Positions 3,797-52,000 of a stretch of DNA of 64,000 bases are shown here, one piece after another. The notes below the pieces were generated by a model that made no database searches, had not been told where the DNA came from, and saw only the letters and a list, made by a program, of their open reading frames with translations. Position 1 is the stretch's first letter. The number at the start of each line of letters is the position of its first letter. Both the position numbers and the translations under genes were made by a program. The DNA is from Candidatus Avelusimicrobium pullarium (GTDB lineage: Bacteria; Elusimicrobiota; Elusimicrobia; Elusimicrobiales; Elusimicrobiaceae), in assembly GCA_944323745.1 (NCBI GenBank), contig CALUTQ010000002.1:186001-250000 (forward strand). The letters are read 5' to 3'.

Positions 3797-5022
3797 ACGA
3801 GTTTTTTAACCTCTTGGACAATGCTTGCAAGCGGCAGCTGTTTTTGTTCGCCGCTTGTTAAATCTTTTAGCGTAATTTGGTTTTGGGCCAGTTCGTCTTC
3901 GCCCAAAATCAGCGCATAGGCCGCGCCGCAACGGTTGGCCTGCTTCATTTGGCCTTTGGCGTTTTTGTCAAAAAGCCCCCCTTCCGTGCGCACGCCGGCC
4001 TGACGCAAATCTTGCATCAAATTGAAGGCGGTTTCATTGCAGGAAGGGCCCAAAGAAGCCACAAAGACGCTCTTTTCTTTTTGCACGGGCGCTTCCCCGC
4101 GCGAAGCAATCACACGCTCCACGCCCATCGCCCAGCCCACAGCCGGGGTGGCGGGGCCGCCCATACTTTTAATCAGACCGTCATAACGGCCGCCGGCGGC
4201 AATGGCGTTTTGGGAGGTATCGCCGGCCTGAAACTCAAACACGGTGCGGCTGTAATAGTCCAGCCCGCGCACCAGCATAGGGTCTACGATAAAATCTATC
4301 TTGCCTTTCAGCAGGCGCTGCACTTCGTCAAAGTGGGCTTGGCATTCGGGGCAGAGCTTCATCGTCGGCACACGGCCGGCAAAGCGCGGACCGTCTATTT
4401 TGCAGTCCAGCACGCGCAACGGGTTTTTTTCCAGACGGGTTTTGCAATTTTCGCAAAGGGTGTCTTTTTCTTTGGACAAAAAGTCAATCAGCGTTTGGCG
4501 GTAAAGCGGGCGGCATTTGTCGCAGCCCAAGCTGTTGATTTTAACGCTGTAATTTTTGGCGCCGAAGGCGGACACAATGTCTTTAAGCATCAAAATCATT
4601 TCCGCATCGGCCGCCGGAGCGGAATTGCCGATAGACTCGGCCCCGATTTGCTCAAACTCGCGGTAGCGGCCCGCCTGCGGGCGTTCGGCACGGAACATAT
4701 TGCCGATATAATAAAACTTTTGCACCGGGGCGGCCTGCGTAAAATTGTTTTCCAAATACGCGCGCACTACGCCCGGGGTGCCCTCGGGGCGGATGGCCAA
4801 TTGGCGGTGGCCGGCGTCTTCAAAGGTGTACATTTCTTTTTGGACGATGTCGGTCGTTTCGCCGGTGGATTTAACAAAAAGTTCTTTTTGTTCTACCGTC
4901 GGCAAACGAAGCTCGCCAAACCCGTAGCGGCGCAGCACGCCGCGGGCGCAGTTTTCCAGCTCGGTAAATAAATTAGATTGGGGCTCAAAAATGTCCCGAA
5001 AGCCTCTGACTAGTTTGCTCAT
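3793..5022 (-). CDS. hisS: Histidyl-tRNA synthetase
   Basis: This 409-residue class II synthetase charges tRNA-His. Histidine-specific motifs are LVRGLDYYSRTVFEF at about residue 250 and AAGGRYDGL at about 275. A central region carries CDKC, CENC and CPEC pairs, as in many bacterial HisRS of this branch. The C-terminal anticodon-binding domain is present. It is the first gene of the hisS-aspS pair and overlaps aspS by 4 bp. Confidence 0.97.
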   Translation of the reverse strand: MSKLVRGFRDIFEPQSNLFTELENCARGVLRRYGFGELRLPTVEQKELFVKSTGETTDIVQKEMYTFEDAGHRQLAIRPEGTPGVVRAYLENNFTQAAPVQKFYYIGNMFRAERPQAGRYREFEQIGAESIGNSAPAADAEMILMLKDIVSAFGAKNYSVKINSLGCDKCRPLYRQTLIDFLSKEKDTLCENCKTRLEKNPLRVLDCKIDGPRFAGRVPTMKLCPECQAHFDEVQRLLKGKIDFIVDPMLVRGLDYYSRTVFEFQAGDTSQNAIAAGGRYDGLIKSMGGPATPAVGWAMGVERVIASRGEAPVQKEKSVFVASLGPSCNETAFNLMQDLRQAGVRTEGGLFDKNAKGQMKQANRCGAAYALILGEDELAQNQITLKDLTSGEQKQLPLASIVQEVKKLV

Positions 5023-5166
5023 ACAGAGTTATTTTAGCATTTTGAGAGAAGGATAAATAGCCGTAAACGGCAAAAAAATTACTTTTTGGTACGGATAAAC
5101 GCAGATAGAGTTTTTGAAAAGTAGGCTATGTGGCGCAATTATTTAGCGCATACAAAAACTTAGGTG

Positions 5167-5240
5167 TCGGCACCCTCGGAAGCAAGCGCCTCATTAAACA
5201 CAAAAAAACCACGCTTTGACGTGGTTTCTAAATGGTGGAC
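5167..5240. repeat. Copy 1 of a duplicated tRNA trailer/terminator unit
   Basis: These 74 bp match 5268-5339 apart from one substitution and a 2-nt length difference. On the minus strand the unit carries the last nucleotides of the tRNA including CCA, a hairpin terminator (AACCACG/CGTGGTT at 5202-5229) and about 35 bp beyond. Here no tRNA body precedes it, so it is a remnant of a tandem duplication. The remaining sequence from 5023 to 5166 shows nothing I can name. Confidence 0.75.
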
Positions 5241-5267
5241 ACAAAAAGGATCGCTCCGAGCGCCCTT

Positions 5268-5339
5268 TCGGCACCCTCGGAAGCAAGCGCCTCGTTAAAC
5301 AAAAAAACCACGCTTTGACGTGGTTTCTAAATGGTGGAC
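5268..5339. repeat. Copy 2 of the tRNA trailer/terminator unit
   Basis: This copy directly follows the intact tRNA-Ala on the minus strand. Its hairpin (5301-5328, AACCACG/CGTGGTT then T7 on the minus strand) should terminate the tRNA transcript. It lies 101 bp from copy 1. Confidence 0.75.
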
Positions 5340-5408
5340 GTGATCGGGATCGAACCGACGACCTCCTCGTTGCGAACGAGGCGCTCTCCCAAGCTGAGCT
5401 ACACGCCC
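5332..5408 (-). tRNA. tRNA-Ala(CGC)
   Basis: A complete 77-nt cloverleaf can be drawn on the minus strand: acceptor GGGCGUG/CACGUCC, D stem GCUC/GAGC, anticodon stem CCUCG/CGAGG with loop UUCGCAA (anticodon CGC, Ala codon GCG), and T arm GUCGG/CCGAU. The G3:U70 pair that marks alanine tRNAs is present. CCA is encoded. An extended -10 (TGCTATAAT, 5449-5441) lies about 33 bp upstream. Confidence 0.95.
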
Positions 5409-5491
5409 AAAAACGGTTCGCTGTTCTTGACGACTTATTTATTATAGCATATCCTAAAACAAAAAGAAAAACTCTTTCTTTATCGTGTATC

Positions 5492-6097
5492 CTACGGCAG
5501 ATAATACCAACCTGATTTGTTGACTGATTCGGTTCCGCCTAAAGACAAACATACCTTTTTGGCATAAGCCAAAGCTTCTTCAGGAACGCCGCCTGCGGCA
5601 GAAGCACGGCAATTAGGAGAAAACCCCATAACTCCTTCTCCCACTCCTTCGCGATAAGGGACTGTATAAGGCTCTACATACGTAGCACAGCCGGGAGCAT
5701 ACTTTGGACATTTTTTAACTGTGGCGATTATACCGTGATAACTTCTAGACACATCTAATCGGGCATCAGGACAATCCAAAGTATCATAGGAATAAGAAGA
5801 GTTTGCAATATATATGCATCCATTTGGGAATTGTATATCCAAATCTCTAATATCATCTGCATATTTCCCATTAGCCATATAATACACTTCTTGGGCATTA
5901 CGTATGGAATGTACCCACGAACGCACTGTATTAAAACGCGTTTTATAAACAGACATCTGATATTGCGGCAAAGCAATAGCGGCCAAAATGCCGATAATCA
6001 ACACTACTACCAAAAGTTCTATCAGCGTAAAGCCGCCAAATTTGCCCTTGGCGGGAATAATATTGAAAGAAATGTTTTTTTGATAAATTTTGCTCAT
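5492..6097 (-). CDS. Type IV pilin-like protein with palindromic start region (copy A)
   Basis: The 201-residue product carries a prepilin cleavage site GG^FTLIE preceded by an unusually long leader of 22 residues (MSKIYQKN...). The hydrophobic helix [20 protein letters not shown] follows, with Glu5 of the mature protein, then ALPQYQ. The C-terminal domain has several Cys and is unlike the other copies. The ATG at 6097 is preferred because it sits at the same place in all six copies. No Shine-Dalgarno is present; the promoter overlaps the start. The product should be processed by prepilin peptidase and assembled into pili or pseudopili. Confidence 0.9.
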   Translation of the reverse strand: MSKIYQKNISFNIIPAKGKFGGFTLIELLVVVLIIGILAAIALPQYQMSVYKTRFNTVRSWVHSIRNAQEVYYMANGKYADDIRDLDIQFPNGCIYIANSSYSYDTLDCPDARLDVSRSYHGIIATVKKCPKYAPGCATYVEPYTVPYREGVGEGVMGFSPNCRASAAGGVPEEALAYAKKVCLSLGGTESVNKSGWYYLP

Positions 6098-6131
6098 AGG
6101 CAAAATTTATCAAAAAAAAAAAACAATGCAA
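6075..6131 (-). promoter_or_regulatory. Pilin promoter A: T-tract spacer and start-codon palindrome
   Basis: On the minus strand -35 TTGCAT (6131-6126) is followed by a 16-bp spacer that includes T12, then TGA-TAAATT (-10 at 6109-6104), 6 nt and the ATG. A perfect inverted repeat with 19-bp arms (6075-6093 and 6100-6118) encloses the start codon in a 6-nt centre. The downstream arm encodes SKIYQK. Confidence 0.7.
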
Positions 6132-6222
6132 GGCCTTCCAGTGCTTGCAGCCAAACAACGTTGAAGCAAACCGGCGGAAAAGCTACAATATACATATCTC
6201 TATTTTTTAAAGAGGAAGAACT

Positions 6223-7521
6223 ATGTCCAGCAAAATAAGAGTCAGCGACGTAGGCAAATACGTCGGGCAAGAAATTACCTTAAAGGGTTGGCTCTATAAT
6301 AAGCGCTCCAGCGGCAAGCTGCACTTTTTGCAACTGCGCGACGGAAGCGGCATTATTCAATGCGTGATGTTTAAAGGCGAGGTATCGCCGGAACTTTTTG
6401 AATTGGGAGACAAACTGACCCAGGAATCTTCCATTATCGTAACGGGCACTATCCGCGAGGACAAACGCTCCCCGCTGGGTTTTGAAATGGGCGTGAAAGA
6501 CTTGCAAGTGGTGCAAATGGCCAAAGATTATCCCATTTCCCCCAAAGAACACGGCCCCGAATTTTTGATGCATAACCGTCATTTGTGGCTGCGTTCGCTT
6601 AAACAAAACGCCATTTTAAAAATTCGCGACGAAATTATTTTTGCCATTCGCGAATATTTGCACAACAACGGTTTTGTGCTGGCAGACTCCCCCATTTTAA
6701 CACCGGCCGCCTGCGAAGGTACCAGCACGCTTTTTGAAACCGATTATTTTGGCGAAAAAGCCTTTTTAACCCAAAGCGGCCAACTGTATGCGGAAGCCTC
6801 TGCTATGGCCTTGGGGCGTACGTACTGCTTCGGGCCCACCTTCCGTGCCGAAAAAAGCAAAACCCGCCGCCACCTGACGGAGTTTTGGATGGTGGAGCCG
6901 GAAGTGGCCTATAACGATTTGGACGATAATATGGACTTGGCCGAAGACTTCATTAAATACCTTGTAGGCCAAGTGCTTAAAAACCGCGCCGAAGAATTAA
7001 AAATTTTAGGCCGCGATACGACCAAACTGCAAGCTACCGTGGAAAAGAAATTCCCCCGCATAGCCTATACGGACGCCATTGAAATTTTGCATAAGAAAGG
7101 CAATAACACCCCTTGGGGCGGCGATATCGGCGGCGATGAGGAAACCCTGCTGGGCGAAGATTATGACACGCCTATTATGATTCACCGTTATCCTACAGCC
7201 ATCAAGGCTTTTTATATGAAGCAAGACCCGCAAAACCCCGATGTAGTGCTTGCGGTGGACGTTATCGGCCCCGAAGGCGCGGGTGAGATTATCGGCGGCA
7301 GCCAGAGAGAAGACGACTACGACACGATGGTGCGCCGTATGAAAGAAAGCGGGTTAGACCCTGCCGGCTACGACTGGTATTTGGACTTGCGCAAATACGG
7401 CAGCGTACCGCATTCCGGCTTTGGTATGGGCATTGAGCGTATGGTGCGCTGGGTATGCGGTTTGCAGCACGTACGCGAGACGATTCCCTTCCCGCGAATG
7501 ATGGACAAAATCAGACCGTAA
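6223..7521 (+). CDS. asnS: Asparaginyl-tRNA synthetase
   Basis: This 432-residue class II synthetase charges tRNA-Asn. The N-terminal OB domain (about 1-105) is followed by the catalytic core with motif 2 [19 protein letters not shown] and motif 3 [21 protein letters not shown] stretch near residue 360 is characteristic of AsnRS and separates it from AspRS. A ribosome site (AAGAGGAAG) lies 6 nt before the ATG. The gene stands alone. Confidence 0.96.
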
Positions 7522-7537
7522 AATCTTATCTTTCGTA

Positions 7538-7569
7538 AAAAGCCCTGCGTAGCCAGGGCTTTTTATTTT
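7538..7569 (+). terminator. asnS terminator
   Basis: An AGCCCTG/CAGGGCT stem is followed by TTTTATTTT, 17 bp after the asnS stop. Confidence 0.85.
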
Positions 7570-7741
7570 GGGAATTCACTATACTCATTTAGCACACAGA
7601 AGTTTTTTCATAGAGCAAAAAAATAAGATTTTCCGCATTTAAAATGAAACGATTTCCATAGAAACGAGATAAATTTTATTTGTATTCTTACGGCAAGTGA
7701 CACTAAAAACTCAAATATTTCTATCTTATTAGTTTAAATTA

Positions 7742-7780
7742 ACAAAAGACTCTCTTTTGCCATAAAAGAGAGTCTTTTGT
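7742..7780. terminator. Strong hairpin between asnS and the first surface paralogue
   Basis: A perfect stem of 18 bp (ACAAAAGACTCTCTTTT and its complement) closes a short loop. T-rich flanks are on both sides, so it could stop transcripts from either direction. The rest of the 289-bp intergenic stretch 7522-7810 is A+T-rich and shows no gene. Confidence 0.6.
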
Positions 7781-7810
7781 TCTGGATAGTTATAAATAAG
7801 AATATAGGTT

Positions 7811-8773
7811 TTACCAACCGTTTTTAAAAGGTTCACAAGAGCCCTGGTATTCATCTACGGTATCAAAACCAGCATCCACTATTGCACAGCGATCTCCTTC
7901 AACACAAGAGCCTTGGCAAGAGTCCATAGAAGATCCACAACCATTCCCGTAACAAGATCCTCCACCGACATATTCTATTTCCCAGTCCCAGTACCAACAA
8001 TCGGCATCAGAAGTAGAAGTATTGGGACAGCATTCACTCTTATGAGCCAGCTTATAAGTTCTGTCACTGCAACTGCAGTCATCTATACTGCAGGCACTCC
8101 AAGCACCCCATTTCCCTGTAGAAGTATCACATTTACGGGTTCTTACGCCAGCATTATTACAACCACAAGACTCTGAGCTTAGGCCAGAACAAGGAATTGT
8201 CGCTTTCTCCCCTTCGCCGCAGACTAAAAAGACGCCTTTACCGCCATTTATCGTCAATTGGCTCCATTCCATTTTGTTATTGGTCGCGTCACAGGCGGGA
8301 AAGCGGCGGCCCGAAGCGGGACTAAACAAATACAAATCTGTCATATCGGCTCGTTTGGTCGCTTCGGCAGATTGTATGGTTGCTCCCTCTATCGTATCCA
8401 CCGTCAAATCGTGTGCAAATTCCAGCACGCCCGGCGCTACTACTTGCGCTCCACCCGAACGACGGCTGAATAAAGTATCCGTGGCAATTTCCGAAGACGA
8501 TTTGGACGAATTCAACGCCAAGACGCCTCTGCTAACAATTAAATTGCCCGTATTTAACGCGCGTGAATCGGAAGACAATTTATAAACCGACAGTTTCTCC
8601 CCCGCGTCCAACGTACAATTGCCTAATAATCCCACGTCGCACGTGCCGGTTACACCTAAGTCCCCGTATGAGGCATAAGGCACCGGAAAATACGTCACCA
8701 TTTTAATATTGTCTGCCACAGCAAACGGCGCGGCAGCCATAAAACCCAAAAGGGCAAAAAGAATTTTTTTCAT
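7811..8773 (-). CDS. Secreted TYFPVPYASY-family protein, paralogue 1 (TSP1-like segment)
   Basis: The 320-residue product has a signal peptide ending AVA-DN. Residues 21 to about 190 form a conserved domain starting NIKMVTYFPVPYASYGDLGV and ending VFLVCGEG, almost identical in the two following genes. The C-terminal 130 residues are Cys-rich. They include GVRTRKC...WGAWSACSIDDC, which has the W-x-x-W and Cys spacing of thrombospondin type 1 repeats, then an unrelated Cys-rich tail. The start at 8773 has a GGAAGG ribosome site; an extension upstream would precede the signal peptide and is unlikely. Export is clear; function is unknown, perhaps surface adhesion. Confidence 0.85.
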   Translation of the reverse strand: MKKILFALLGFMAAAPFAVADNIKMVTYFPVPYASYGDLGVTGTCDVGLLGNCTLDAGEKLSVYKLSSDSRALNTGNLIVSRGVLALNSSKSSSEIATDTLFSRRSGGAQVVAPGVLEFAHDLTVDTIEGATIQSAEATKRADMTDLYLFSPASGRRFPACDATNNKMEWSQLTINGGKGVFLVCGEGEKATIPCSGLSSESCGCNNAGVRTRKCDTSTGKWGAWSACSIDDCSCSDRTYKLAHKSECCPNTSTSDADCWYWDWEIEYVGGGSCYGNGCGSSMDSCQGSCVEGDRCAIVDAGFDTVDEYQGSCEPFKNGW

Positions 8774-8982
8774 AAAATTCCTTCCTGTACAAAAAAGTTG
8801 TTTCAAATATAGTATAAATGATAAATGACAGAAAAGCAATGTATTTTTAATGATCCTTCTTGGCCCCATACACTTTTTGTGCAAGATGTTTGAATTGATT
8901 GATATTTCTTAGTTTTAGTATTTATTGATTATTGTGAAAAATTTTTCCGCCATTACTGTAGGGAAACTGATTAAATAACTAT

Positions 8983-9014
8983 AAAACCCTTCGTCTTTGA
9001 CGAAGGGTTTTATT
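8983..9014 (-). terminator. Terminator of surface paralogue 2
   Basis: An ACCCTTCGTC/GACGAAGGGT stem lies 21 bp after the stop of the 9035-10276 gene and is followed by T-rich sequence on the minus strand. The remaining 8774-8980 region holds the promoter of paralogue 1 (TATACTATA about 48 bp upstream of its start) and nothing else recognisable. Confidence 0.8.
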
Positions 9015-9034
9015 TAATTTGATTTAATTCCAGT

Positions 9035-10276
9035 TTAACCGCAGCAAGTAACTTCCCTATACTGAACGGTTTCTTGGCAGGTTCCTGGCTGATAGAAATA
9101 TTTAGTTTCGCTTTTTTCACACGAAATTTGTCTGTAAAATCCGCGCTGTATAGCCTCGCTGCAGCCTAAACTGGATATCGAACTGCCTTCTACCAGAATT
9201 ATAGTATTTATGCTTCCTGTGCCATACATAGCACAGTAGCGATCGGCCATACTATCCACACCGGTGGTTATATTCTGGTTATAAAGTACTTTTACATTGT
9301 TAACAATAACACCCGGTCTAAGAGCTTCCGGCCCATTATATTCATAACGACCGGCACCGGCAGGGCAAGACCACGTAAACGATAATTCTGCGCTGATAGA
9401 GTTATTGGAAGAAGAGGAAGATGTATCCGGATACACATCAATACACGTTTCCGCGGGGCAAACAGACGGACTGGTTGAAAATTTGGCTTCTCTGTTTCCG
9501 TCACAGGTATCTTTAACAGAACTGTCAGCCGTGTATCCTTGGCCGGAATAAGAAAACTTAGCTTGCAGCACTCTGGTAATATCCATACACGTGCCAGAAA
9601 ACCCGTTACTGCAGTTGTAAAGTGCATTTTTATTGGATACAGGACACGTTTCCGTTACATCTGAACCGTATCCTGTCCGGATAGTTCCGTAACTCGGTTG
9701 ACACGCCGAGACCCCTTCGCCGCAAACCAAAAAGACACCTTTATCGCCATTTATCGTCAATTGGCTCCATTCCATTTTGTTATTGGTCGCGTCGCAGGCG
9801 GGAAAGCGGCGGCCCGAAGCGGGACTAAACAAATACAAATCTGTCATATCGGCTCGTTTGGTCGCTTCGGCAGATTGTATGGTTGCTCCCTCTATCGTAT
9901 CCACCGTCAAATCGTGTGCAAATTCCAGCACGCCCGGCGCTACTACTTGCGCTCCACCCGAACGACGGCTGAATAAAGTATCCGTGCCAATTTCCGAAGA
10001 TGATTTGGACGAATTTAACGCCAAGACGCCTCTATTGGCAATTAAACTGCCCGTGTTTAACGCGCGTGAATCGGAAGACAATTTATAAACCGACAGTTTC
10101 TCCCCCGCGTCCAACGTACAATTGCCCAATAACCCCACGTCGCACGTGCCGGTTACACCCAAGTCCCCGTACGAGGCATAAGGCACCGGAAAATACGTCA
10201 CCATTTTAATATTGTCTGCCACAGCAAACGGCGCGGCAGCCATAAAACCCAAAAGGGCAAAAAGAATTTTTTTCAT
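9035..10276 (-). CDS. Secreted TYFPVPYASY-family protein, paralogue 2
   Basis: The 413-residue product has the same signal peptide and the same domain to VFLVCGEG at about residue 190 as its neighbours, with very few substitutions. The C-terminal 220 residues differ completely from paralogues 1 and 3. They contain about 20 Cys, a Ser-rich run (SSSSSNN) and end CCG, which suggests a disulfide-rich extracellular domain. A ribosome site (GAGGACGGGG) precedes the ATG. The promoter region, GACCTATACTATAAATAG, is shared with paralogue 3. Function unknown. Confidence 0.85.
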   Translation of the reverse strand: MKKILFALLGFMAAAPFAVADNIKMVTYFPVPYASYGDLGVTGTCDVGLLGNCTLDAGEKLSVYKLSSDSRALNTGSLIANRGVLALNSSKSSSEIGTDTLFSRRSGGAQVVAPGVLEFAHDLTVDTIEGATIQSAEATKRADMTDLYLFSPASGRRFPACDATNNKMEWSQLTINGDKGVFLVCGEGVSACQPSYGTIRTGYGSDVTETCPVSNKNALYNCSNGFSGTCMDITRVLQAKFSYSGQGYTADSSVKDTCDGNREAKFSTSPSVCPAETCIDVYPDTSSSSSNNSISAELSFTWSCPAGAGRYEYNGPEALRPGVIVNNVKVLYNQNITTGVDSMADRYCAMYGTGSINTIILVEGSSISSLGCSEAIQRGFYRQISCEKSETKYFYQPGTCQETVQYREVTCCG

Positions 10277-10366
10277 AAAATCCCCGTCCTCGTTAATAAA
10301 ACACGTCTATTTATAGTATAGGTCATAATTCTTAAGAAATCAATATAACATATAAAAACACAAAAG

Positions 10367-10396
10367 AAGAGCAATTCCTTGCGAAATTGCTCTTTC
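10367..10396 (-). terminator. Probable terminator of surface paralogue 3
   Basis: An AAGAGCAATT/AATTGCTCTT stem lies 20 bp after the stop of the 10417-11457 gene. The following minus-strand sequence is T-rich but interrupted. Confidence 0.6.
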
Positions 10397-10416
10397 TGAA
10401 TAATTTGGAAGATAAA

Positions 10417-11457
10417 TCAAAACAAAGCCTTAGCTTCACAGACCCATTCATAAGGCACCATCAGACAACTATCTCCCACACTATAATATCCGTCGCGCAA
10501 TTCATCTTGGCAAATGGAAAAAGAAGAAGATGTCTTTGCTAACGGATTAGACGAACAATCATTTTCCGTATAGTCTTCACATTTAGAAACCGTTGTTCCT
10601 GAACTTTCCCACCGAGTGGAACAATCGGAACCCCATCTGTCCCCAACACTACCTTGTCTCCAATACAGAGTCCAAGAATAACAATCCGCATCTGTATAAG
10701 GTTGGCCAATACAGCATTCACTCTTATGGGCCAGTTTATAAGTTCTGTCGCTGCAACCGCAATCATCTATACTGCAGGAGCTCCAAGCACCCCAGTTACC
10801 TGTAGAAGTATTGCACTCACGGGTTCTGACTCCCGCATTATTACAGCCGCAGGGCTCTGAACTATTGCCAGAACAAGCGAGTTCAATTTTTTCCCCTTCG
10901 CCGCAGACCAAAAAGACACCTTTACCGCCATTTATCGTCAATTGGCTCCATTCCATTTTGTTATTGGTCGCGTCGCAGGCGGGAAAGCGGCGGCCCGAAG
11001 CGGGACTAAACAAATACAAATCTGTCATATCGGCTCGTTTGGTCGCTTCGGCAGATTGTATGGTTGCTCCCTCTATCGTATCCACCGTCAAATCGTGTGC
11101 AAATTCCAGCACGCCCGGCGCTACTACTTGCGCTCCACCCGAACGACGGCTGAATAAAGTATCCGTGCCAATTTCCGAAGATGATTTGGACGAATTTAAC
11201 GCCAAGACGCCTCTATTGGCAATTAAACTGCCCGTATTTAACGCGCGTGAATCGGAAGACAATTTATAAACCGACAGCTTCTCCCCCGCGTCCAACGTAC
11301 AATTGCCTAATAATCCCACGTCGCACGTGCCGGTTACACCCAAGTCCCCATATGAGGCATAAGGCACCGGGAAATACGTCACCATTTTAATATTGTCTGC
11401 CACAGCAAACGGCGCGGCAGCCATAAAACTCAAAAGGGCAAAAAGACATTTTTTCAT
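10417..11457 (-). CDS. Secreted TYFPVPYASY-family protein, paralogue 3 (TSP1-like segment)
   Basis: The 346-residue product begins with a signal peptide (one Lys-Cys change from the others) and the shared domain of about 170 residues. The next 65 residues match paralogue 1 (CGCNNAGVRTREC, WGAWSSCSIDDC, DRTYKLAHKSECC). The last 90 residues are private and Cys-rich. So paralogues 1 and 3 share two modules while paralogue 2 shares only the first. The GAGGACGGGAAT ribosome site and TATACTATAAATAG promoter match paralogue 2. Export is clear; function unknown. Confidence 0.85.
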   Translation of the reverse strand: MKKCLFALLSFMAAAPFAVADNIKMVTYFPVPYASYGDLGVTGTCDVGLLGNCTLDAGEKLSVYKLSSDSRALNTGSLIANRGVLALNSSKSSSEIGTDTLFSRRSGGAQVVAPGVLEFAHDLTVDTIEGATIQSAEATKRADMTDLYLFSPASGRRFPACDATNNKMEWSQLTINGGKGVFLVCGEGEKIELACSGNSSEPCGCNNAGVRTRECNTSTGNWGAWSSCSIDDCGCSDRTYKLAHKSECCIGQPYTDADCYSWTLYWRQGSVGDRWGSDCSTRWESSGTTVSKCEDYTENDCSSNPLAKTSSSFSICQDELRDGYYSVGDSCLMVPYEWVCEAKALF

Positions 11458-11563
11458 AAAATTCCCGTCCTCGTTAATAAAAAACGTCTATTTATAGTAT
11501 AGGTCTTACATTTTCACAAATCAATACCTTTTCACTTTCTTTATGAAACACTTAATATACACT

Positions 11564-11595
11564 AAAAAACCCGCGTCAAACGCGGGTTTTTTAAA
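11564..11595. terminator. lon terminator
   Basis: An AAAAAACCCGCG/CGCGGGTTTTTT stem lies immediately after the lon stop codon and can act in both directions. Confidence 0.85.
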
Positions 11596-11598
11596 TTT

Positions 11599-14124
11599 TC
11601 AGCGGTGCTTGCGCCCCGTTGTTTTGCCCCGAGCGGACTTACCCTTTTTGGCAGCAGCCCGGGCCGTCTGTTTTTTGGCTGTCTTAGCCTGGGCTTTACG
11701 CACGGTTTTCATCGTCGCTTTGGCACGCGTTTTAGAAGACGTCTTTTTGGCCGCCGTCTTGGCTGTGCTTTTTCTGCCTTTCTTGGCGGCTTTGTAACCC
11801 TCCAACGCAAGCGGCAGCACTTCGTCCATATGCTTGACAGGGATAAGCGTCAGCTCTTTGCGCACTTTTTCGGGCAGTTCGGCTACGTCTTTTTCGTTGG
11901 TATGCGGAAAAAGAATGGTCTTTACCCCCTCACGGTACGCAGCAAGGAATTTTTCTTTTATTCCCCCCACCGGCAGCACACGGCCCGTAATGGTTACCTC
12001 ACCGGTCATAGCCAGTTTTTTCTTTACCGGCAAGCCGGAAAGCAGGCTGATCAAGGCTGTAGTAATAGTAATACCGGCCGACGGCCCGTCTTTGGGCACG
12101 GCACCTTCGGGGAAGTGAATATGAAAGTCCGTATGCTCAAAGTTGACGCCTTTGCCAAAGCCGCGGCTGCGCGCATACGTCAGCGCGGCACGCACGGACT
12201 CTTTCATCACATTGCCCAGCATACCCGTCAAAATCAGCTGGCCTTTGCCCGGTATTTTGGCCGCTTCAATAGACAGCGTCTCTCCGCCCACGCTGGTCCA
12301 GGCCAAACCGGTGGCAATGCCCACGCCGTTTTCTTCGGTGGCGAAATTGGAATATTTCGGCACACCCAAAAACTCGTGCAGGTTTTTGTCGGTCACGGTG
12401 ATTTTTTTGCCGCCGTTTTCCACATACATCTTGGCGGCTTTGCGGCACAAACTGCCGATTTCACGCTCCAAATTGCGCACGCCGGCCTCACGCACGTATT
12501 CGCGCATAATCAGGGCGACGGCTTCTTTGGTAATTTCCAAGGCGCCTTCTTTCAGGCCGTGCTGTTTCATCTGTTTGGGAATTAAATAGTGATCGGCTAT
12601 TTCGTGTTTTTCATAATCGGTGTAGCCGGAAAAATCAATAATTTCCAAACGGTCGCGCAGCGTATTGGGTATGCCCGAAAGCGTGTTGGCCGTGGTAATA
12701 AACATCACTTTGGACACGTCGTAAGGCACGTCCAAAAAGTGATCCACAAAGTCTTTATTCTGCTCGGGGTCTAACAGTTCCAGCAAAGCGGCTGCGGGGT
12801 CGCCGCGCCAGTCCGAACCCATTTTGTCTATTTCGTCCAGCAGAAAAACGGGGTTGGAGCTTTTGGCCTTGCTGATGCCCTGAATAATGCGCCCGGGCAT
12901 AGAACCGATATAGGTTCTGCGGTGGCCGCGAATTTCGCTTTCGTCACGCACGCCGCCCAAAGACATACGCACAAATTTGCGTCCGATTGCCCGTGCGATG
13001 GACTTGGCCAAAGACGTCTTACCCACGCCCGGAGGCCCCACAAAGCACAGCACCGGCCCGCGCAGTCCTTCGGTCAGTTTGCTCACGGCAATATATTCCA
13101 AAATACGTTCTTTGGGTTTGTCCAGGCCAAAGTGATCGTCGTCAAGCACCTTTTTGGCAGCGGCAATATCCAGCACGTCCTGTGTAGTAATGTTCCAAGG
13201 CATATTGACCAGCCAGTCCAAATACGTGCGTGACACCGTCGCCTCCGGCGAAAACGGCGCCATTTTTTGCAAACGGTCCACTTCTTTTTCGGCCGCTTCT
13301 TTGGCGGCAGGGGGCAAACCGTTTTTCTTGATTTTGGCGCGGATGGCGTCCAGCTCTTTTTGGAAATCGTCCTTTTGGCTCAGTTCCTTTTGAATGGCCT
13401 TCATTTGCTCATTGAGATAATATTCTTTTTGGTTTTTCTCAATCTGAGCGCGCACCTTGGAGTGAATTTTTTCTTCCAAACCCAAAATTTCCACTTCGCT
13501 GGTGATGAGCTTTAAGATTTTTTCCAACCGCTCTTTTACGTCGGTTGCTTCCAAAATTTTCTGGCGTTGCTCCGTTTTTACCACCATATTGGAAGCAATG
13601 GTGTCGGCCAGCTTGGACGGGTCTTCTATCTGGCGCAGGAAGGATACCCCCTCCACCGCAATACGCCGCGAAACGCGTGCATAGTGGTCAAACTCGTCAA
13701 GCACTTTGCGCATTAAGGCCTGCACCACGGGGCTGTTATCTTCTTTTTCCTCTATATAGTCCACCGTGGCAAACCAGGCGTTTGTAAGCGGGTTAAGCTC
13801 CAGTTTTTCCACCTTGGCGCGCACCAAGCCTTGCAAAAACACCTTAATAGAGCCGTCCGGCATTTTTAAAGACTGCGTAATTTCGCTCAGTACCCCGAAA
13901 TGATAGATATCGCTTTCTTTAGGGTCTTCTGTTTCAGCCACTTTTTGAGAAAGGGCCAACACATATTTACCCGGCGCTTCCAGGGCCAAATCAATGGCCA
14001 CGATAGACTTTTCCCGGTCTACCGAAAGCGGCAAAGACATCCCCGGGAACATAACCACGTCCCGTATCGCCACTGCCGGCACTACTTTTGGCAGGGAAAG
14101 AGTTCTTTTCATTGTTTCTTCCAT
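11599..14124 (-). CDS. lon: Lon protease with a long basic C-terminal tail
   Basis: This 841-residue ATP-dependent serine protease degrades misfolded and regulatory proteins. The LON substrate-binding domain covers about 1-210. The AAA+ domain carries Walker A GPPGVGKTS and Walker B PVFLLDEIDKM. The protease domain has Ser682 in KDGPSAGITI and the dyad Lys at about 725, as in family members. Beyond about residue 780 there is an extra Lys/Ala/Arg/Thr-rich tail of about 60 residues, unlike usual Lon proteins and like histone H1 or nucleoid proteins. The ATG at 14124 has GGAGAG 6 nt upstream. The promoter overlaps a CIRCE-like operator. Confidence 0.96.
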   Translation of the reverse strand: MEETMKRTLSLPKVVPAVAIRDVVMFPGMSLPLSVDREKSIVAIDLALEAPGKYVLALSQKVAETEDPKESDIYHFGVLSEITQSLKMPDGSIKVFLQGLVRAKVEKLELNPLTNAWFATVDYIEEKEDNSPVVQALMRKVLDEFDHYARVSRRIAVEGVSFLRQIEDPSKLADTIASNMVVKTEQRQKILEATDVKERLEKILKLITSEVEILGLEEKIHSKVRAQIEKNQKEYYLNEQMKAIQKELSQKDDFQKELDAIRAKIKKNGLPPAAKEAAEKEVDRLQKMAPFSPEATVSRTYLDWLVNMPWNITTQDVLDIAAAKKVLDDDHFGLDKPKERILEYIAVSKLTEGLRGPVLCFVGPPGVGKTSLAKSIARAIGRKFVRMSLGGVRDESEIRGHRRTYIGSMPGRIIQGISKAKSSNPVFLLDEIDKMGSDWRGDPAAALLELLDPEQNKDFVDHFLDVPYDVSKVMFITTANTLSGIPNTLRDRLEIIDFSGYTDYEKHEIADHYLIPKQMKQHGLKEGALEITKEAVALIMREYVREAGVRNLEREIGSLCRKAAKMYVENGGKKITVTDKNLHEFLGVPKYSNFATEENGVGIATGLAWTSVGGETLSIEAAKIPGKGQLILTGMLGNVMKESVRAALTYARSRGFGKGVNFEHTDFHIHFPEGAVPKDGPSAGITITTALISLLSGLPVKKKLAMTGEVTITGRVLPVGGIKEKFLAAYREGVKTILFPHTNEKDVAELPEKVRKELTLIPVKHMDEVLPLALEGYKAAKKGRKSTAKTAAKKTSSKTRAKATMKTVRKAQAKTAKKQTARAAAKKGKSARGKTTGRKHR

Positions 14125-14191
14125 AATACTCTCCGTTTAAAGGGGGCTGCTCTCCCGACGCAAAACAAGGCGCCTTGAGCCAGTTTAGAAA

Positions 14192-14240
14192 AGTATAACA
14201 AATTATTTTAAAATTAGCAAGTTATTTATTTGAGTGCTAA
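14192..14240 (-). promoter_or_regulatory. lon promoter with CIRCE-like HrcA operator
   Basis: TTAGCAAGT (14214-14222), 9 bp, GAGTGCTAA (14232-14240) matches the CIRCE element; the right half is perfect and the left half differs in its last three bases. On the minus strand -35 TTGCTA (14220-14215) overlaps the left half, and -10 TATACT (14197-14192) follows at 17 bp. Repression by HrcA and heat-shock induction of lon are inferred. Confidence 0.75.
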
Positions 14241-14306
14241 CTTTGAGCAGACAGACGCTCGTTTCTTCCTTGTACACTAGACGGGTTCGGCAGGTTGGAA
14301 ACATAA

Positions 14307-14388
14307 GGCCCAAAAAACAAATAGGTCTTAAAAAATAGCGCTGTTAGGCCCAAAGTCCCTTGTGAAGCCTATCAAGAAACACTAATCT
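14307..14388 (+). promoter_or_regulatory. GGYC-array promoter of the 14418 gene
   Basis: GGCC at 14307, 17 bp to GGTC at 14324, 23 bp to GGCCCAAAGTCCC at 14347-14359, then directly -35 TTGTGA (14360-14365), a 17-bp spacer and -10 TAATCT (14383-14388). Confidence 0.7.
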
Positions 14389-14417
14389 GTAAGTAAGTTA
14401 AACTTACAGGAGGATGT

Positions 14418-14957
14418 ATGAAAAAAGCCGGTTTTTTTAGTGTTGTTCTTTCTCTTTTTACCCTGATGTTCGCAGCCGTCCCGGGCGCCAATGCACTATG
14501 TTATGCCGACAGCTCGCGCGAAGCGGCTATGTATATTGACCAGCAAACCGACGTGCCGGAAGTGTCCGACGAAGAAATTTACCTGCTGCAGCAGGCGTTT
14601 GCTGCCGGTCTGCAAACCATAGACGCGCATACCTATACCAACAGCCTGACGGAACAGGACAAAGAAATTCTGCAGCTGCTCGATGTTACCATTCCCGCCA
14701 TTATCAATAAAGTAAAAACCTCCATTACCGACGTGGAAGAAGAACTGATGAAAGCCAACGAAACGCTGGCACGCAAAATAGTGGCCAACCAAAACCTTTA
14801 CCCCGCGCCGACCCGTTGGGACGTGGCCGCTATGTTTGCTTCCACTACCTCTTTAATGCACGCAATGATGAGCGGCAAAATTGACGAAGGCGTGGCGGAA
14901 ATTCTGATGAATGAAAGTATGCAAATGCTGCAGGACATGCTGCCGCAGGAAGAATAG
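14418..14957 (+). CDS. Small secreted helical protein, unknown function
   Basis: The product has 179 residues with a signal peptide probably cleaved after ANA (about residue 26). The mature part is acidic and almost wholly helical in character, with Met-rich segments (MFASTTSLMHAMM, MQMLQDMLPQEE). There is no transmembrane segment after the signal and no recognisable motif. A strong AGGAGG ribosome site precedes the ATG. It is a single gene with its own GGYC-array promoter and terminator, divergent from lon. Confidence 0.8.
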   Translation: MKKAGFFSVVLSLFTLMFAAVPGANALCYADSSREAAMYIDQQTDVPEVSDEEIYLLQQAFAAGLQTIDAHTYTNSLTEQDKEILQLLDVTIPAIINKVKTSITDVEEELMKANETLARKIVANQNLYPAPTRWDVAAMFASTTSLMHAMMSGKIDEGVAEILMNESMQMLQDMLPQEE

Positions 14958-46969: not shown

Positions 46970-49099
46970 TCACAATACGTTAAAATAGCTTTGTGCACTT
47001 TGCCCGCCGCAGGTAACCGTCAGGTCAAACTTTCCTTTTTGCAAAGGCCACCAAACGTCGGCGCCCGAAAAGGGCAAGGTTTCTTGGTTCACCTGCCATT
47101 GGCAGGGCGCTTGTGCCCCCGCCGTTGCAAAATGCAGCTGCTGGGCAGAAGCCGGCAAAGCGGGGTCATATTTAAACACGTCCCCCCGTACCGGAAACAC
47201 AATGCGCAGGTTACCGTCCGCCTCGGTGTGGGAGCCATCGCAGGTTTGCGTCGGCAAATTCTGCTCCGTAAACACTTCTTCGCGCGTGCGCAGGCATAAA
47301 GGGCCTGCCAGCAGGCCGCTTTGTTCGCACACGGTGGCGCGGCGTACGCCGTAAGGCACTTCAAACGGGCCGGACGGATACTTGCCGTTAGCGTACAAAA
47401 GCACATCGTGCATAATGGGCGCCGCGCCGGAAATGCCGGATACCTTTTGCATAGACGACGCGTCAAAATTCCCCGCCCATACCGCCACGGTTAAACGCGG
47501 AGTGTAGCCGATGGCAAAATTATCGCGGTAATCTTTGCTGGTGCCCGTTTTGGCCGCGGCGGGAAAAGTAAAATGCAAAGGGGAGTTTAAACCAAAGGCG
47601 TCTGCACGGGCGGCATTGTCGGCAAGGATATCCGTTATCACGTAACTTACGTCTGCAGGCAAAGCTTGTTTGCGCTCCACGCGTTTTATTAAATAAGGTT
47701 CCGTGGCAAACACCACGGGGCGCACCGTACCGCCGCGGGCCAGCGCCGCATAAGCGTTTGCCAGTTCCAAGAGCGTTACTTCCCCCCCGCCCAAGGCCAA
47801 CCCCAGACCGTAAAACTCAGGCGCTTTATTCAAAGAGACAAAGCCCAAATCGTGCAATAAATTTAACATACGGGCCGCTCCCAGCGGCTCGGCCGCTTTG
47901 ACGACGGGAATGTTATACGAGCAAGCCAAAGCCCGCCGCACCGATACGCCGCCGTGAAAAGTTTCGTCGTAATTGCGCGGGCGGAAGCCCCCTTCAAAAA
48001 AGGTGTCTTCGTCCTGCAAAATACTGGCCGCGCTTAACCCGTTTTGCAAAGCCAGTGCATACACAAACGGCTTTAGCGAAGACCCCGGCTGGCGCAAAGC
48101 CGTTACGCCGTCCACCTGCCCGCTGTGCCGCTCATCATAAAAATCGGCAGAGCCTACATACGCCAGTATGCCGCCCGTTTGATTGTCCAGCACTACCACG
48201 GCGGCGTTGGTAACGTTGTTGTCGGTCAGTTTGGCTAAATGGTTTTGTACCGCTTTTTCGGCATAGAGTTGCAAATCTTTGTCCAGCGTAGTGTACACAA
48301 AAGACGCCTGCGGGGCCATTTCGTACACTTTGCGCGCAAAGTGCGGCGCCGAAAACGGACGTTCCCCCGTCCGCAGGCCCAGTGCTTCGCGCATAGCCAA
48401 ATCGTATTGTTCCGCGGTAATGGCACCGGTAGAACGCATTGCCTGCAATACCCGCCCGCGGCGCGCAAGAGCCCCTTTGGGGTTTTTAAGCGGGTTTAAG
48501 CGCGACGGGGACTGTATCAGCCCCGCCAGCAAAGCCGCCTGCGCCAAAGACACGTCGGAAGCCGGCAGGCCGAAATAAAATTGGGCCGCCGCCTCTACGC
48601 CCTGCGTCATATTGCCCAGTTCCAGCGAATTAAAATATTCCTGCAAAATTTCTTCTTTGCTTTTTTGGCGTTCCAGTTTAACGGCGTCCCACGCTTCCAA
48701 AATTTTACCCCACAGGTTTTTGCTGCGCGGCGTGTGCAAACGCGCCAGCTGCTGGGTAATGGTGGACGCGCCGGACACCACCCCGCCGCGCGTTACGTTC
48801 TGATAAACGGCCCGCAGTACGGCGCGCCAGTCCACGCCGAAGTGGCTGTAAAAACGGCGGTCCTCCGCCGCTACCACGGCCAGCACCAGCCAAGGGGACA
48901 CCTCGGAAAGCGTTACGGGTTTGCTATAGGTTTCCCGCTCCGACAAAAAAGAACGCAAAGGCCGGCCCTGGCGGTCCACCAACTGCACGGACACCGCCGC
49001 CGAAGGAACCGACGCATCGGGCACGGAAAGCGCTTCCCCGTCCAACGGACGGGGAAGCAGAAATGACAACAGGCAAAGGCAAAGAAACGTTTTTTTCAT
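46970..49099 (-). CDS. pbpC: Penicillin-binding protein 1C
   Basis: The 709-residue bifunctional murein synthase has a signal-like N-terminus, then a GT51 glycosyltransferase domain (about 60-225, catalytic Glu in AAEDRRFYSHFG and GGVVSGASTITQQLAR). The transpeptidase domain follows (about 290-560, Ser in PGSSLKPF, SYN, KTGTS). A C-terminal BiPBP_C-type domain is present. Its start overlaps the A2M stop by one base. The A2M-pbpC pair is a known bacterial arrangement in which the macroglobulin is thought to guard the periplasm. Confidence 0.95.
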   Translation of the reverse strand: MKKTFLCLCLLSFLLPRPLDGEALSVPDASVPSAAVSVQLVDRQGRPLRSFLSERETYSKPVTLSEVSPWLVLAVVAAEDRRFYSHFGVDWRAVLRAVYQNVTRGGVVSGASTITQQLARLHTPRSKNLWGKILEAWDAVKLERQKSKEEILQEYFNSLELGNMTQGVEAAAQFYFGLPASDVSLAQAALLAGLIQSPSRLNPLKNPKGALARRGRVLQAMRSTGAITAEQYDLAMREALGLRTGERPFSAPHFARKVYEMAPQASFVYTTLDKDLQLYAEKAVQNHLAKLTDNNVTNAAVVVLDNQTGGILAYVGSADFYDERHSGQVDGVTALRQPGSSLKPFVYALALQNGLSAASILQDEDTFFEGGFRPRNYDETFHGGVSVRRALACSYNIPVVKAAEPLGAARMLNLLHDLGFVSLNKAPEFYGLGLALGGGEVTLLELANAYAALARGGTVRPVVFATEPYLIKRVERKQALPADVSYVITDILADNAARADAFGLNSPLHFTFPAAAKTGTSKDYRDNFAIGYTPRLTVAVWAGNFDASSMQKVSGISGAAPIMHDVLLYANGKYPSGPFEVPYGVRRATVCEQSGLLAGPLCLRTREEVFTEQNLPTQTCDGSHTEADGNLRIVFPVRGDVFKYDPALPASAQQLHFATAGAQAPCQWQVNQETLPFSGADVWWPLQKGKFDLTVTCGGQSAQSYFNVL

Positions 49100-52000
49100 T
49101 ACGGCTTAATGACCGCACGCGTGGTGGCGTTACGCCCAAAGAAGGCGGGGTCATACATTTGGCTGGCCCACAGGCTGGGGTAAGAAAACTCCCCTTCCAC
49201 GCTGGCCTGCACCAAATAAGAATATTCGTGCTCGCCGGCGGACAGATAGTCGGCAAATACGGCGATGCGGTCGTCATATTTTTCGTCGCGCGTAAAACCG
49301 CCCCAAAAATCGTTCTTCAGCGCAGCAGCCTGCGAACGGCTTTCGGTAGCCAAAGACGTATTGACGATTTCAAAACCGGCCGGAATAAAATCTTCCAGCA
49401 CGACAAACGAGGCCGCGGCCGTGCTGCGGACGGTAAGCGTTACTTTATAGCGCCCGCCTTCCTTAAATTCCGTCACGGCTTTGCCTTGCAAGTCCGTAAT
49501 TTTACGGGAAACGTCAAAACCGGCGTTGACCGTGTCGGTATAAGCGGCGGGGGCATAGGTCTGCCAGAGCGTATAATAAAGCGTACCGACGCCGTTTTTG
49601 CTAAAGCGTGCACGGGCCTGTGTTCCGTTCTGATACACTTGCGCAAACGGCCAAGAACCGCGCTGCGTCTTTAAGAAACGGCCTTTAAACTGCGCATCCA
49701 TTACCGTTTTGCCGTCCAGCAATACGCCGGCCGTAAAATCGGGCTCCACGGACTCTTTAAGCGTATAATAGGCGTTCAGTGCAGACATCACCGCGGCATT
49801 GGCGCTGGTGTTGATCCAGTAGCCTTCCTCGCCCAGCTGGTCCGTCAACCATTTGACGGCTTGATACGGGCGGGGCAGATAGTCGCCCACCACCAGCAGC
49901 GCTTCCATAGACAAGGCCGTCACTTTCACGTCGGTCATATGCAGCCAGGGCTGATTGCCTCCGGCGGAAAAATGCACCGTTTGTGTGCCGTATTGGGCAC
50001 GGTTGAGCAATTCCTGCGCCAGCTTCATTTTAACGTCGGCCCCTTTATTTAACTGGTTGGAGGCCAGCAGCAAATAGGCCTGCGCCGGCGCGCTTAAACT
50101 GTTGCGCTTGGCATAGAGGTTATTAAACTGCCCGTCCATCTTCTGCCCGTATAAAGACAGCACCAGCACCGCATAGGCGCGTACGGTTTCGTCTTCCGAG
50201 GCGGAATAGGGATAGGCGCGGCGTTGGGTTTTTTGCCCGAACACGCCCAGCAGCCAAGAAACGGCTTTTTGCAAGGCGCCGTCATTGACTTTGTATCCTT
50301 CCTGCTTGGCACGGTAAGCCGTTTCCAAGGCGTAGGCGGTTACATACGGGTCGGGCAAGGCACCCGGCCAATAGGCAAATCCGCCGTCATCGCTTTGATA
50401 CAAAGTCATTTCATCCAAAATCTGCTGGGTCTGTTTTTTATACTCCGTCAAATCGCCCAGGCCGAAATCTTCTATCATTTTGGCGCCTTCAATGACGGGG
50501 CGTATTTTGGACATTTTTTGTTCCAAACAATCGTAAGGATACGTCAGCAAATACACCATACCGCCGCGCAAATTAATCAGCGCCGTAGAGGCCAGCGTCG
50601 CCGCTACGCGCGCGGGCACTTTTTCGTTGACGGAGGCCGGTTTTTCAAGCAGTTGTTCTTCGGCCGCGTCCGTGGCGGAATAGAGGGCCAGCGTTTGCTG
50701 TTTTTCCACATCTTCCACCTGCAATTTGCTGACGACGCCGTCGCTTATTTTGCCTGCCTGCGCCGCAAAAGAAATTTCCGCTTCGCCGTTTTCCACAGCT
50801 TGGCAGTCCCACGTTACCAGCTTAGCTGCCCCTTTGGCCACGTTCACTTTTTGTGAGCCGCCGCTTAAGCGCACGGCCCCCTGGGCACGGGCGGTAAGGG
50901 TAAGGGCACCTTTTTCGTCTTCATAATTATAGACGACGGCACCGCATTTAAATTTATCGCCCACGCGGGCAAAGCGCGGCATTTTGGGCGTAACCATTAA
51001 CGGCTTGGATACTTTTACATTTGTTTCCCCTCCGCCAAACTCTTTGACGGTGGCCGCCACGGCCATAATGCGGAAGGTGGTTAAATTGTCGGGCAGGGTA
51101 AACTGCACGCTGGCGCGGCCCTTGCCGTCGGTGCGGACGGAAGCGTTGAAATAGGGCGTAAATTCAAAATGGCTGCGCAAATCGGCCCCGCCCAGTTTGT
51201 CGGAAGATCCGCCCCCGCCGCCGCGGTTTTCGCCTTTTTCGCCAAAGTTGCGCTGGCCGATGATAAACACGCGGTTATCGGCCGTAGAAACCGACAGCTG
51301 CGCCGGTGAATAGAACACGTCCATCAAATCGGGCCGTTTATAGCCGGTTAAAGAGAGCACCCCTTCGTCCACCACCATCAGCGTTACGTCGGCCGGTACG
51401 GGTTTGCCTTCCACTGCCGTATTTAAAGATACCGTTACCGTTTCGCCGGGGCGGTAAAGCGTTTTGGCGGTAGAAACTTGAGTGTCTATTTCCCGTTCCT
51501 TTTGGGAAACAGTCAAATTGACATAGCCCGTTTTGCCCTGCGGCTTGGCCAGATCCAGTCCTTCCTTATCATATTCGGGCTGGGCCGCGCGGCCGCGCAC
51601 CAGGGTAACCCCCACAAACACATTGGGCAAATAAGCGTTTTTAATAGGCACTTCCACATAGTCCGCACCCGAGGCTACCGGCACCGTCCACGCGTCTAAA
51701 ATGCCTTCGCGCTCCACAGTAACCAAAGCCAGGGCGCTTTCGTAGGGGCTTTTGACCAAAATGCGCGCCGTATCGCCGGGGTTATATTCCTTTTTATCTT
51801 GTTCCAGCTGCAAAATGTCATCGTCGGTTTGCTGCCAGTAGGCTTCCCCTTTGCCATACACCGTAAAACCGAAGCCGCCCTGCACTTCCCGCCCTTGTGC
51901 GTCTTTGGCGCTCAGCGTAACCTGATAAGACCCGGGCTCCGAAGCCACATAAGAGAAGTCGTACCCTTTGTCCGTGACGGTAAAGTTTTGGGACGGGAAA

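What the first reader, a model, noticed from the sequence alone, without database searches (positions are those of the whole stretch)
7811..11457. Three tandem exported proteins: constant N-terminal domain, exchangeable Cys-rich C-termini
About 190 residues (from TYFPVPYASY to VFLVCGEG) are nearly identical, also in DNA, while the ends differ. Paralogues 1 and 3 share an additional module of about 65 residues with a thrombospondin-type W-x-x-W/Cys pattern, paralogue 2 does not. The constant part may be a secretion or anchoring domain new to annotation, and the variable parts may face hosts or other microbes.
Basis: partly seen in the sequence, partly recalled or inferred. Interest (0 to 1): 0.72.

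Follow-up and report, generated by a model that had tools for sequence, protein, structure and literature searches.

The report
Exported proteins with swapped cysteine-rich tails
A gut bacterium carries three neighbouring genes for exported proteins that share an almost identical front half but have different cysteine-rich tails, and relatives show the fronts being kept alike inside each genome while the tails are replaced, a pattern known from surface proteins that face a changing environment but here in an undescribed protein family.

Summary
Three minus-strand genes between lon and asnS encode Sec-exported proteins whose first 186-188 residues are 97-98% identical in DNA. Identity stops at the VCGEG codons; the tails differ. 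No Pfam, NCBIfam, PHROGs or PDB-sequence match was found. The constant domain is a family present in 65 of 66 genomes of the genus (E <= 0.01), in 18 of 24 others of its family, and, mostly as its N-terminal Y[FY]PxPY motif alone, in 15 of 250 further phylum genomes.

In one pair of species two tails are orthologous across species, while the constant domains group by genome (100% and 94.5% identical within, 64% between; both quartets 100% bootstrap). At conserved chromosomal slots whose flanking genes are mostly 80-96% identical, 53 of 57 tail pairs show no detectable similarity. Tails are built from recurring small Cys modules; 51 of 56 tails in the genus have an even Cys number.

Best reading: secreted or surface display proteins with a common export/assembly part, kept uniform by gene conversion, and exchangeable binding tails. 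The evolutionary pattern is well supported; the function is inferred. The thrombospondin label is not supported. AlphaFold monomers were too poor to use.

The parts
7811..8773 (-). gene c1, 320 aa, constant domain + Cys-rich tail ending FKNGW
9035..10276 (-). gene c2, 413 aa, constant domain + unrelated Cys-rich tail
10417..11457 (-). gene c3, 346 aa, constant domain + Cys-rich tail
8210..8773 (-). constant domain of c1 (residues 1-188, signal peptide about 1-20 included)
   Evidence: signal peptide judged by eye from sequence
9713..10276 (-). constant domain of c2
10894..11457 (-). constant domain of c3
8027..8209 (-). module shared with c3 (Cys/WxxW part, then the start of the SECC part), 150 of 183 bases identical
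10711..10893 (-). module shared with c1
7994..8071 (-). SECC module of c1 tail (YKLAHKSECC...), also in tails of other species
10678..10755 (-). SECC module of c3 tail
7814..8209 (-). variable tail of c1, 16 Cys (counted from residue 187)
9038..9712 (-). variable tail of c2, 14 Cys (counted from residue 187), two TCDGN modules
10420..10893 (-). variable tail of c3, 16 Cys (counted from residue 187)
11496..11524 (-). promoter-like site upstream of c3 (same upstream block of about 55 bases as c2)
   Evidence: consensus match only
10315..10343 (-). promoter-like site upstream of c2
   Evidence: consensus match only
10367..10394 (-). terminator-like hairpin after c3
   Evidence: number found does not exceed shuffles
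8981..9013 (-). terminator-like hairpin after c2
   Evidence: number found does not exceed shuffles

Best explanation
The three genes are local members of a modular family of Sec-exported, disulfide-rich proteins of Elusimicrobiota. The common N-terminal domain is a shared export, assembly or attachment part; the C-terminal tail is an exchangeable binding or protective head built from small Cys modules. Shown by sequence comparison: homologous recombination (gene conversion) between paralogues keeps the N-domain uniform within a genome, and its tracts end at the domain boundary; tails are retained, rearranged or replaced independently of the N-domain and of the chromosomal slot. Inferred: the uniform domain lets several different tails be presented by one common apparatus or on one common structure, and the tails contact changing partners in the gut (substrate, mucus, competitors, phages or host).
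For: Constant part 97-98% identical in DNA, tails 29-58% in forced protein alignment; synonymous divergence 0.06-0.11 in the N-domain against 0.79 in the module that c1 and c3 share just past the boundary. Two species, G035 and G091: tail A 73% and tail B 56% identical between species, N-domains 64% in DNA between species but 100% (528/528) and 94.5% within; quartet trees conflict, each with 100% bootstrap. The genome of 1,643,562 bases (G102) has five copies, in four or fewer regions by my grouping of the coordinates, N-domains 91-98% identical in DNA, tails 21-32%. Same-slot comparison: 53 of 57 tailed pairs without detectable tail similarity, flanking genes mostly 80-96% identical. Six of nine strong cross-species tail matches of the genus lie in different slots (my reading). 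Recurrent tail modules SECC 14, GQTG 9, TCDGN 9 of 72 tails. Even Cys number in 51 of 56 tails of the genus. Eight tail-less members among 98 non-redundant family ORFs show that the N-domain can stand alone. Tails have lower third-position GC than the N-domain in 38 of 44 genes.
Against: No member has a known function, and surface location was not tested; the proteins could stay in the periplasm or be released. Even Cys numbers do not hold outside the genus (5 of 12). Concerted evolution is incomplete between distant copies (G035 copies in different slots 66-77% in DNA; G092 62%; G001 59%; G097 54%). In the own genome alone, recent triplication cannot be fully separated from conversion. AlphaFold monomers were poor (pLDDT 58.7 and 52.8).
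Confidence: 0.6

Rival explanations
1. Ordinary recent tandem triplication followed by very fast divergence of the tails; no gene conversion.
For: The three copies are tandem and the same slot holds a single copy in a relative with lon and asnS on its two sides (L069).
Against: The c1/c3 shared module has synonymous divergence 0.79 against 0.09 next to it in the N-domain, so the tails split long before the N-domains. In G035/G091 both tail types predate the species split while the N-domains are younger. Copies on different contigs or far apart are also homogenised (G091, G102).
Confidence: 0.12
2. Polymorphic toxin system: constant delivery part, variable toxic C-terminus.
For: Constant N-terminus, variable C-terminus, exchange at a fixed boundary, one downstream orphan tail end of 37 residues in a relative (L084 7541-7651).
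Against: No immunity-like small gene follows: the next ORFs are the next copy or housekeeping genes of the slot (by eye). Tails are Cys-rich with mostly even Cys numbers. No toxin domain in Pfam or NCBIfam for the three proteins, and none in Pfam for the members of A3. The PADLOC library was not searched.
Confidence: 0.05
3. Variation by a dedicated device: shufflon-type inversion or a diversity-generating retroelement.
For: The own genome encodes one reverse transcriptase with a nearby integrase-like ORF.
Against: No inverted repeats of 30 bases or more at the locus; tails differ by whole modules, not by point changes; each gene is complete with its own start region. The reverse transcriptase looks retron-like by eye (recalled motif) and lies on the other contig.
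Confidence: 0.03
4. The proteins are pilin-associated or pilus-tip components: exported by the Sec route and handled by the type IV pilus/type II secretion machinery.
For: In genome G103, tails of two family members carry type IV pilin-like domains (Pilin_GH, E 2.4e-6 and 2.9e-4, both below the curated cut-off); the window's own pilin-like protein matches the same model (E 2.7e-4). Pilin-like genes lie near many members (by eye).
Against: No N-methylation motif in the family itself; pilin genes are numerous in the genus, so vicinity is weak; no pilin domain in the three window proteins.
Confidence: 0.2

Closest known systems
Helicobacter pylori BabA/BabB/BabC outer membrane adhesins (passages of PMC4552749; that paper cites Pride and Blaser 2002 on concerted evolution, not read)
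   Same: Paralogues with homologous ends and a divergent region, recombining within the genome, while the divergent part is held to carry the binding function.
   Different: Bab has constant parts at both ends and a variable middle; here only the N-terminus is constant. Here there is no match to a described family, the tails are modular and Cys-rich, and tail-less members exist.
Long-lasting concerted evolution in prokaryotes (abstract and outline of PMC6053082)
   Same: Paralogues more alike within a genome than between species.
   Different: The abstract speaks of genes of important pathways; here only one domain is homogenised, with a sharp boundary.
Shufflon PilV proteins (recalled)
   Same: Constant N-terminus with alternative C-termini.
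   Different: No inversion cassette seen; every tail sits in a complete gene.
CDI/Rhs polymorphic toxins (recalled)
   Same: Fixed junction between a constant N-terminal and a variable C-terminal part.
   Different: No immunity gene, Cys-rich tails, small N-domain.
Elusimicrobiota proteins with the Y[FY]PxPY motif followed by VGIGT-type repeats
   Same: Export signal followed at once by the same motif.
   Different: The rest of the N-domain and the tails are not alignable with confidence; the likeness of VGIGT repeats to trimeric tail fibres is recalled, and a phage search with one of them found nothing.

Membership tests
Constant/variable surface-protein families with concerted evolution (Bab type) | Constant region more alike within a genome than between orthologues | tested here: met
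   G035/G091 quartet
Constant/variable surface-protein families with concerted evolution (Bab type) | Exported; signal sequence | tested here: inconclusive
   Signal peptide judged by eye from the sequence; no predictor was run
Constant/variable surface-protein families with concerted evolution (Bab type) | Located on the cell surface, binds a ligand | not testable with these tools
   needs a cultured strain
Thrombospondin type 1 repeat | Match to a thrombospondin-type profile | tested here: not met
   No Pfam family up to E = 10, no PDB sequence up to E = 10
Polymorphic toxins (CDI/Rhs) | Immunity gene directly downstream | tested here: not met
   (by eye)
Polymorphic toxins (CDI/Rhs) | Known toxin domain in tail | tested here: not met
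Type IV pilins | N-terminal methylation motif | tested here: not met
   the neighbour at 5492-6103 has it
Diversity-generating retroelement target | Template/variable repeat pair with adenine-directed changes | not tested
   Only a reverse transcriptase was sought
Trimeric tail-fibre-like proteins | Fold match | tested here: inconclusive
   AlphaFold monomers poor; fold searches without a hit at E <= 0.001

The most novel reading that the evidence does not exclude
The constant domain is the building block of an undescribed extracellular fibre or coat of Elusimicrobiota: tail-less members are the bulk subunit, tailed members carry different Cys-rich heads, and gene conversion keeps the building block uniform within a genome because the subunits must fit each other, while the heads are exchanged freely.
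Probability: 0.2. Interest if true: 0.82.

Novelty: new variant of a known kind. Interest (0 to 1): 0.6.

Why it matters
It gives a defined, testable, variable secreted protein family to a phylum whose cell surface is little known. The evolutionary test (domain-bounded homogenisation with exchange of tails across chromosomal slots) is strong and suggests selection for a uniform common part. If genome G102 is Elusimicrobium minutum, as its size suggests to me, the family can be studied in a cultured species.

Tried and rejected
Thrombospondin repeat: no profile or PDB sequence match. Phage origin: no match of c2, or of one distant family member, in 50,697 phage records, and no PHROGs family for c1-c3. 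Structure: two AlphaFold jobs gave mean pLDDT 58.7 and 52.8; in the c3 model only the tail module next to the boundary was well predicted (blocks of pLDDT 80-90); fold searches gave no hit at E <= 0.001. T4 gp34 tail fibre appears in the PDB list at E 3.7, which I treat as noise. DNA pattern TAYTWYCCNNNNCCNTAY in the own genome found only the three genes plus four places that do not look like members. Tail remnants: one clear orphan tail end, in a relative; none outside the genes in window 5001-14500. A DNA motif for exchange was not found. Papers: the E. minutum genome paper is not held; the library searches (seen as listings with titles and starts of abstracts) listed no paper that describes this family. 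I claim no more than that.
Full report
WHAT IS THERE. Three minus-strand genes lie between lon (11599-14124) and asnS (6223-7521), whose Pfam domains fit these names: c1 7811-8773, c2 9035-10276, c3 10417-11457. Each starts with a signal-peptide-like stretch without a lipobox (by eye) and continues with the motif IKMVTYFPVPYASY. The first 186 codons are 540/558, 540/558 and 546/558 identical between the copies. c2 and c3 also share about 55 bases before the start codon; c1 shares mainly the ribosome-binding site region. All three part ways directly after GGCGAAGGGG, the codons of CGEG. c1 and c3 then share 61 codons at 150/183 bases before diverging too. Promoter-like sites precede c2 and c3, and hairpin terminators follow c2 and c3, but the number of such hairpins in the region is no higher than in shuffles.

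NO KNOWN FAMILY. The three proteins match no Pfam or NCBIfam model up to E = 1 and no PHROGs family; a profile of the domain matches no PDB sequence up to E = 10. Thirty aligned members gave only five single Pfam hits of E 0.019-0.048.

WHO HAS IT. A profile of 24 members searched against 340 genomes of the phylum matched 98 at E <= 0.01. Counting the printed rows myself: 65 of 66 genomes of the window's genus (the miss is 66% complete; some hits are partial and a few weak), 18 of 24 others of its family, 15 of the remaining 250, the last mostly over the N-terminal motif only. The named loci are all either Elusimicrobiota or labelled 'uncultured bacterium', among them Candidatus Avelusimicrobium. 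Genome G102 has 1,643,562 bases in one contig, which I recall as the size of Elusimicrobium minutum Pei191; this was not confirmed. In more distant members of the phylum the export signal is followed by TTYYPAPYG.Y and, in several proteins that I saw, VGIGT-like repeats.

THE CONSTANT DOMAIN EVOLVES IN CONCERT. Within genomes the domain is often nearly uniform while tails are not: own genome 97-98% DNA; G035 tandem pair 528/528; G091, three copies on three contigs, 93-95%; G102, five copies, 91-98%; G072, seven copies compared, 80-93%. Between genomes it was 56-65% in DNA in all pairs but one (80%). Not every genome fits: in G035 copies in other slots differ (66-77%), and the G092, G001 and G097 pairs are 54-62%. 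The critical test is G035 against G091. Tail A is 73% and tail B 56% identical in protein between the species, so both tails predate the species split; the N-domains are 64% identical in DNA between species and 100% and 94.5% within. The N-domain tree groups by species, the tail tree by tail type, each with 100% bootstrap of 200. Synonymous divergence of the N-domain is 0 and 0.21 within these genomes and too high to estimate between them. Among the own copies the N-domain has dS 0.06-0.11 and dN/dS about 0.11-0.19, so it is under purifying selection, while the adjacent module shared by c1 and c3 has dS 0.79. Gene conversion that ends at the domain boundary explains this best.

TAILS COME AND GO. 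Family genes sit in recurrent chromosomal slots. I grouped loci by neighbours, adding the window, L067, L069 and L073 to the lon/asnS slot and L123 to another. L069 has both lon and asnS; L066 and L073 have lon, L067 has asnS. Here lon is 94-96% and asnS 95-97% identical in protein to the window's. Over nine slot groups, 86 pairs from different loci were compared: 29 include a tail-less or nearly tail-less member and were set aside; of the other 57, 53 show no tail similarity at E <= 1e-3, one is partial and three are homologous (one of these weak, E 9e-6). Pairs are not independent, and the slot groups include some distant species. Conversely, of nine cross-species tail pairs of the genus with E < 1e-30 (pairs of the other genus and the own-genome pair left out), six lie in different slots and three in the same (my reading). 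One relative (G035) keeps an orphan 37-residue end of tail type B downstream of the gene with tail A (L084 7541-7651). Two species share a 95% identical tail end of 208 residues (L127 and L027); by eye one of them has an extra copy of a module.

TAIL ANATOMY. Three small Cys modules recur: SECC in 14, GQTG in 9 and TCDGN in 9 of 72 tails; 41 have none of the three (models were built from tails in the same set, so counts are descriptive). c1 and c3 carry SECC, c2 carries TCDGN, which also occurs in the G102 proteins. Ten of 56 tails of the genus end in GW, mostly KNGW, eight of them with SECC; c1 is one. 51 of 56 tails in the genus have an even Cys number (binomial p 1.2e-10, related sequences not independent); outside the genus only 5 of 12. 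This points to disulfides in the genus, hence to an oxidising place outside the cytoplasm. In genome G103 two tails contain pilin-like domains just below the Pfam cut-off. One G092 protein has an SECC-type tail on a very different N-part. Third-position GC is lower in the tail than in the N-domain in 38 of 44 genes; in the window 32-40% against 52-53%.

THE DOMAIN CAN STAND ALONE. Eight of 98 non-redundant family ORFs end within four residues after the domain and are not cut by contig ends (L007, L010, L015, L027, L029, L072, L106 and the second gene of L127). Thus the N-domain probably has a use of its own.

STRUCTURE. AlphaFold monomers from 43 and 30 sequences were poor. In the c3 model the module after the boundary reached pLDDT 80-90, the rest mostly below 70. 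Fold searches gave nothing significant. A poor monomer would fit an obligate oligomer, but a shallow alignment explains it equally well.

MECHANISM. Shown: homogenised N-domain, independent tails, sharp boundary, shared modules. Inferred: export through Sec, disulfide-bonded tails outside the cytoplasm, common assembly or attachment through the N-domain, tails as exchangeable binding heads. Rivals (simple duplication, polymorphic toxin, shufflon or retroelement, pilus component) are weighed in their sections; only the pilus link keeps real weight.

VERDICT. The closest known kind is the constant/variable adhesin family of the Bab type (passages of PMC4552749), with which it shares the evolutionary behaviour but, as far as the searched libraries show, no sequence family. 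New variant of a known kind; the protein family itself looks undescribed in the libraries searched.

Noticed in passing
window 5492-6103 (-): Type IV pilin-like protein (N_methyl, E 2.1e-7) next to asnS; its globular part weakly matches Pilin_GH, the same model that matches tails of two family members in genome G103.
   Followed up: partly
window 49099-54741 (-) and 46970-49099 (-): Bacterial alpha-2-macroglobulin (1880 aa) followed by a penicillin-binding protein with a BiPBP_C domain, a pair I recall as usual.
   Followed up: partly
G000:C1:812671-813213 (L153 1234-2205): Reverse transcriptase with YVDD motif (323 aa) near a tyrosine-recombinase-like ORF (by eye); looks retron-like, not tied to the finding.
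   Followed up: partly
L154 1807-2925 (genome G092): Protein with an SECC-type tail ending CKNGW on a very different N-terminal part (MQFVTILSSPVGTFSQLD), next to an ordinary family member.
   Followed up: no
L070, L101, L018/L108: Frame breaks inside the constant domain (two loci) or tail (one); pseudogenes, variation or assembly errors cannot be told apart.
   Followed up: no
contigs of genome G072 (for example C50, C4, C34, C83): Several contigs start inside or just before the constant domain, as expected where near-identical repeats break short-read assemblies; copy numbers in draft genomes are therefore probably too low.
   Followed up: no
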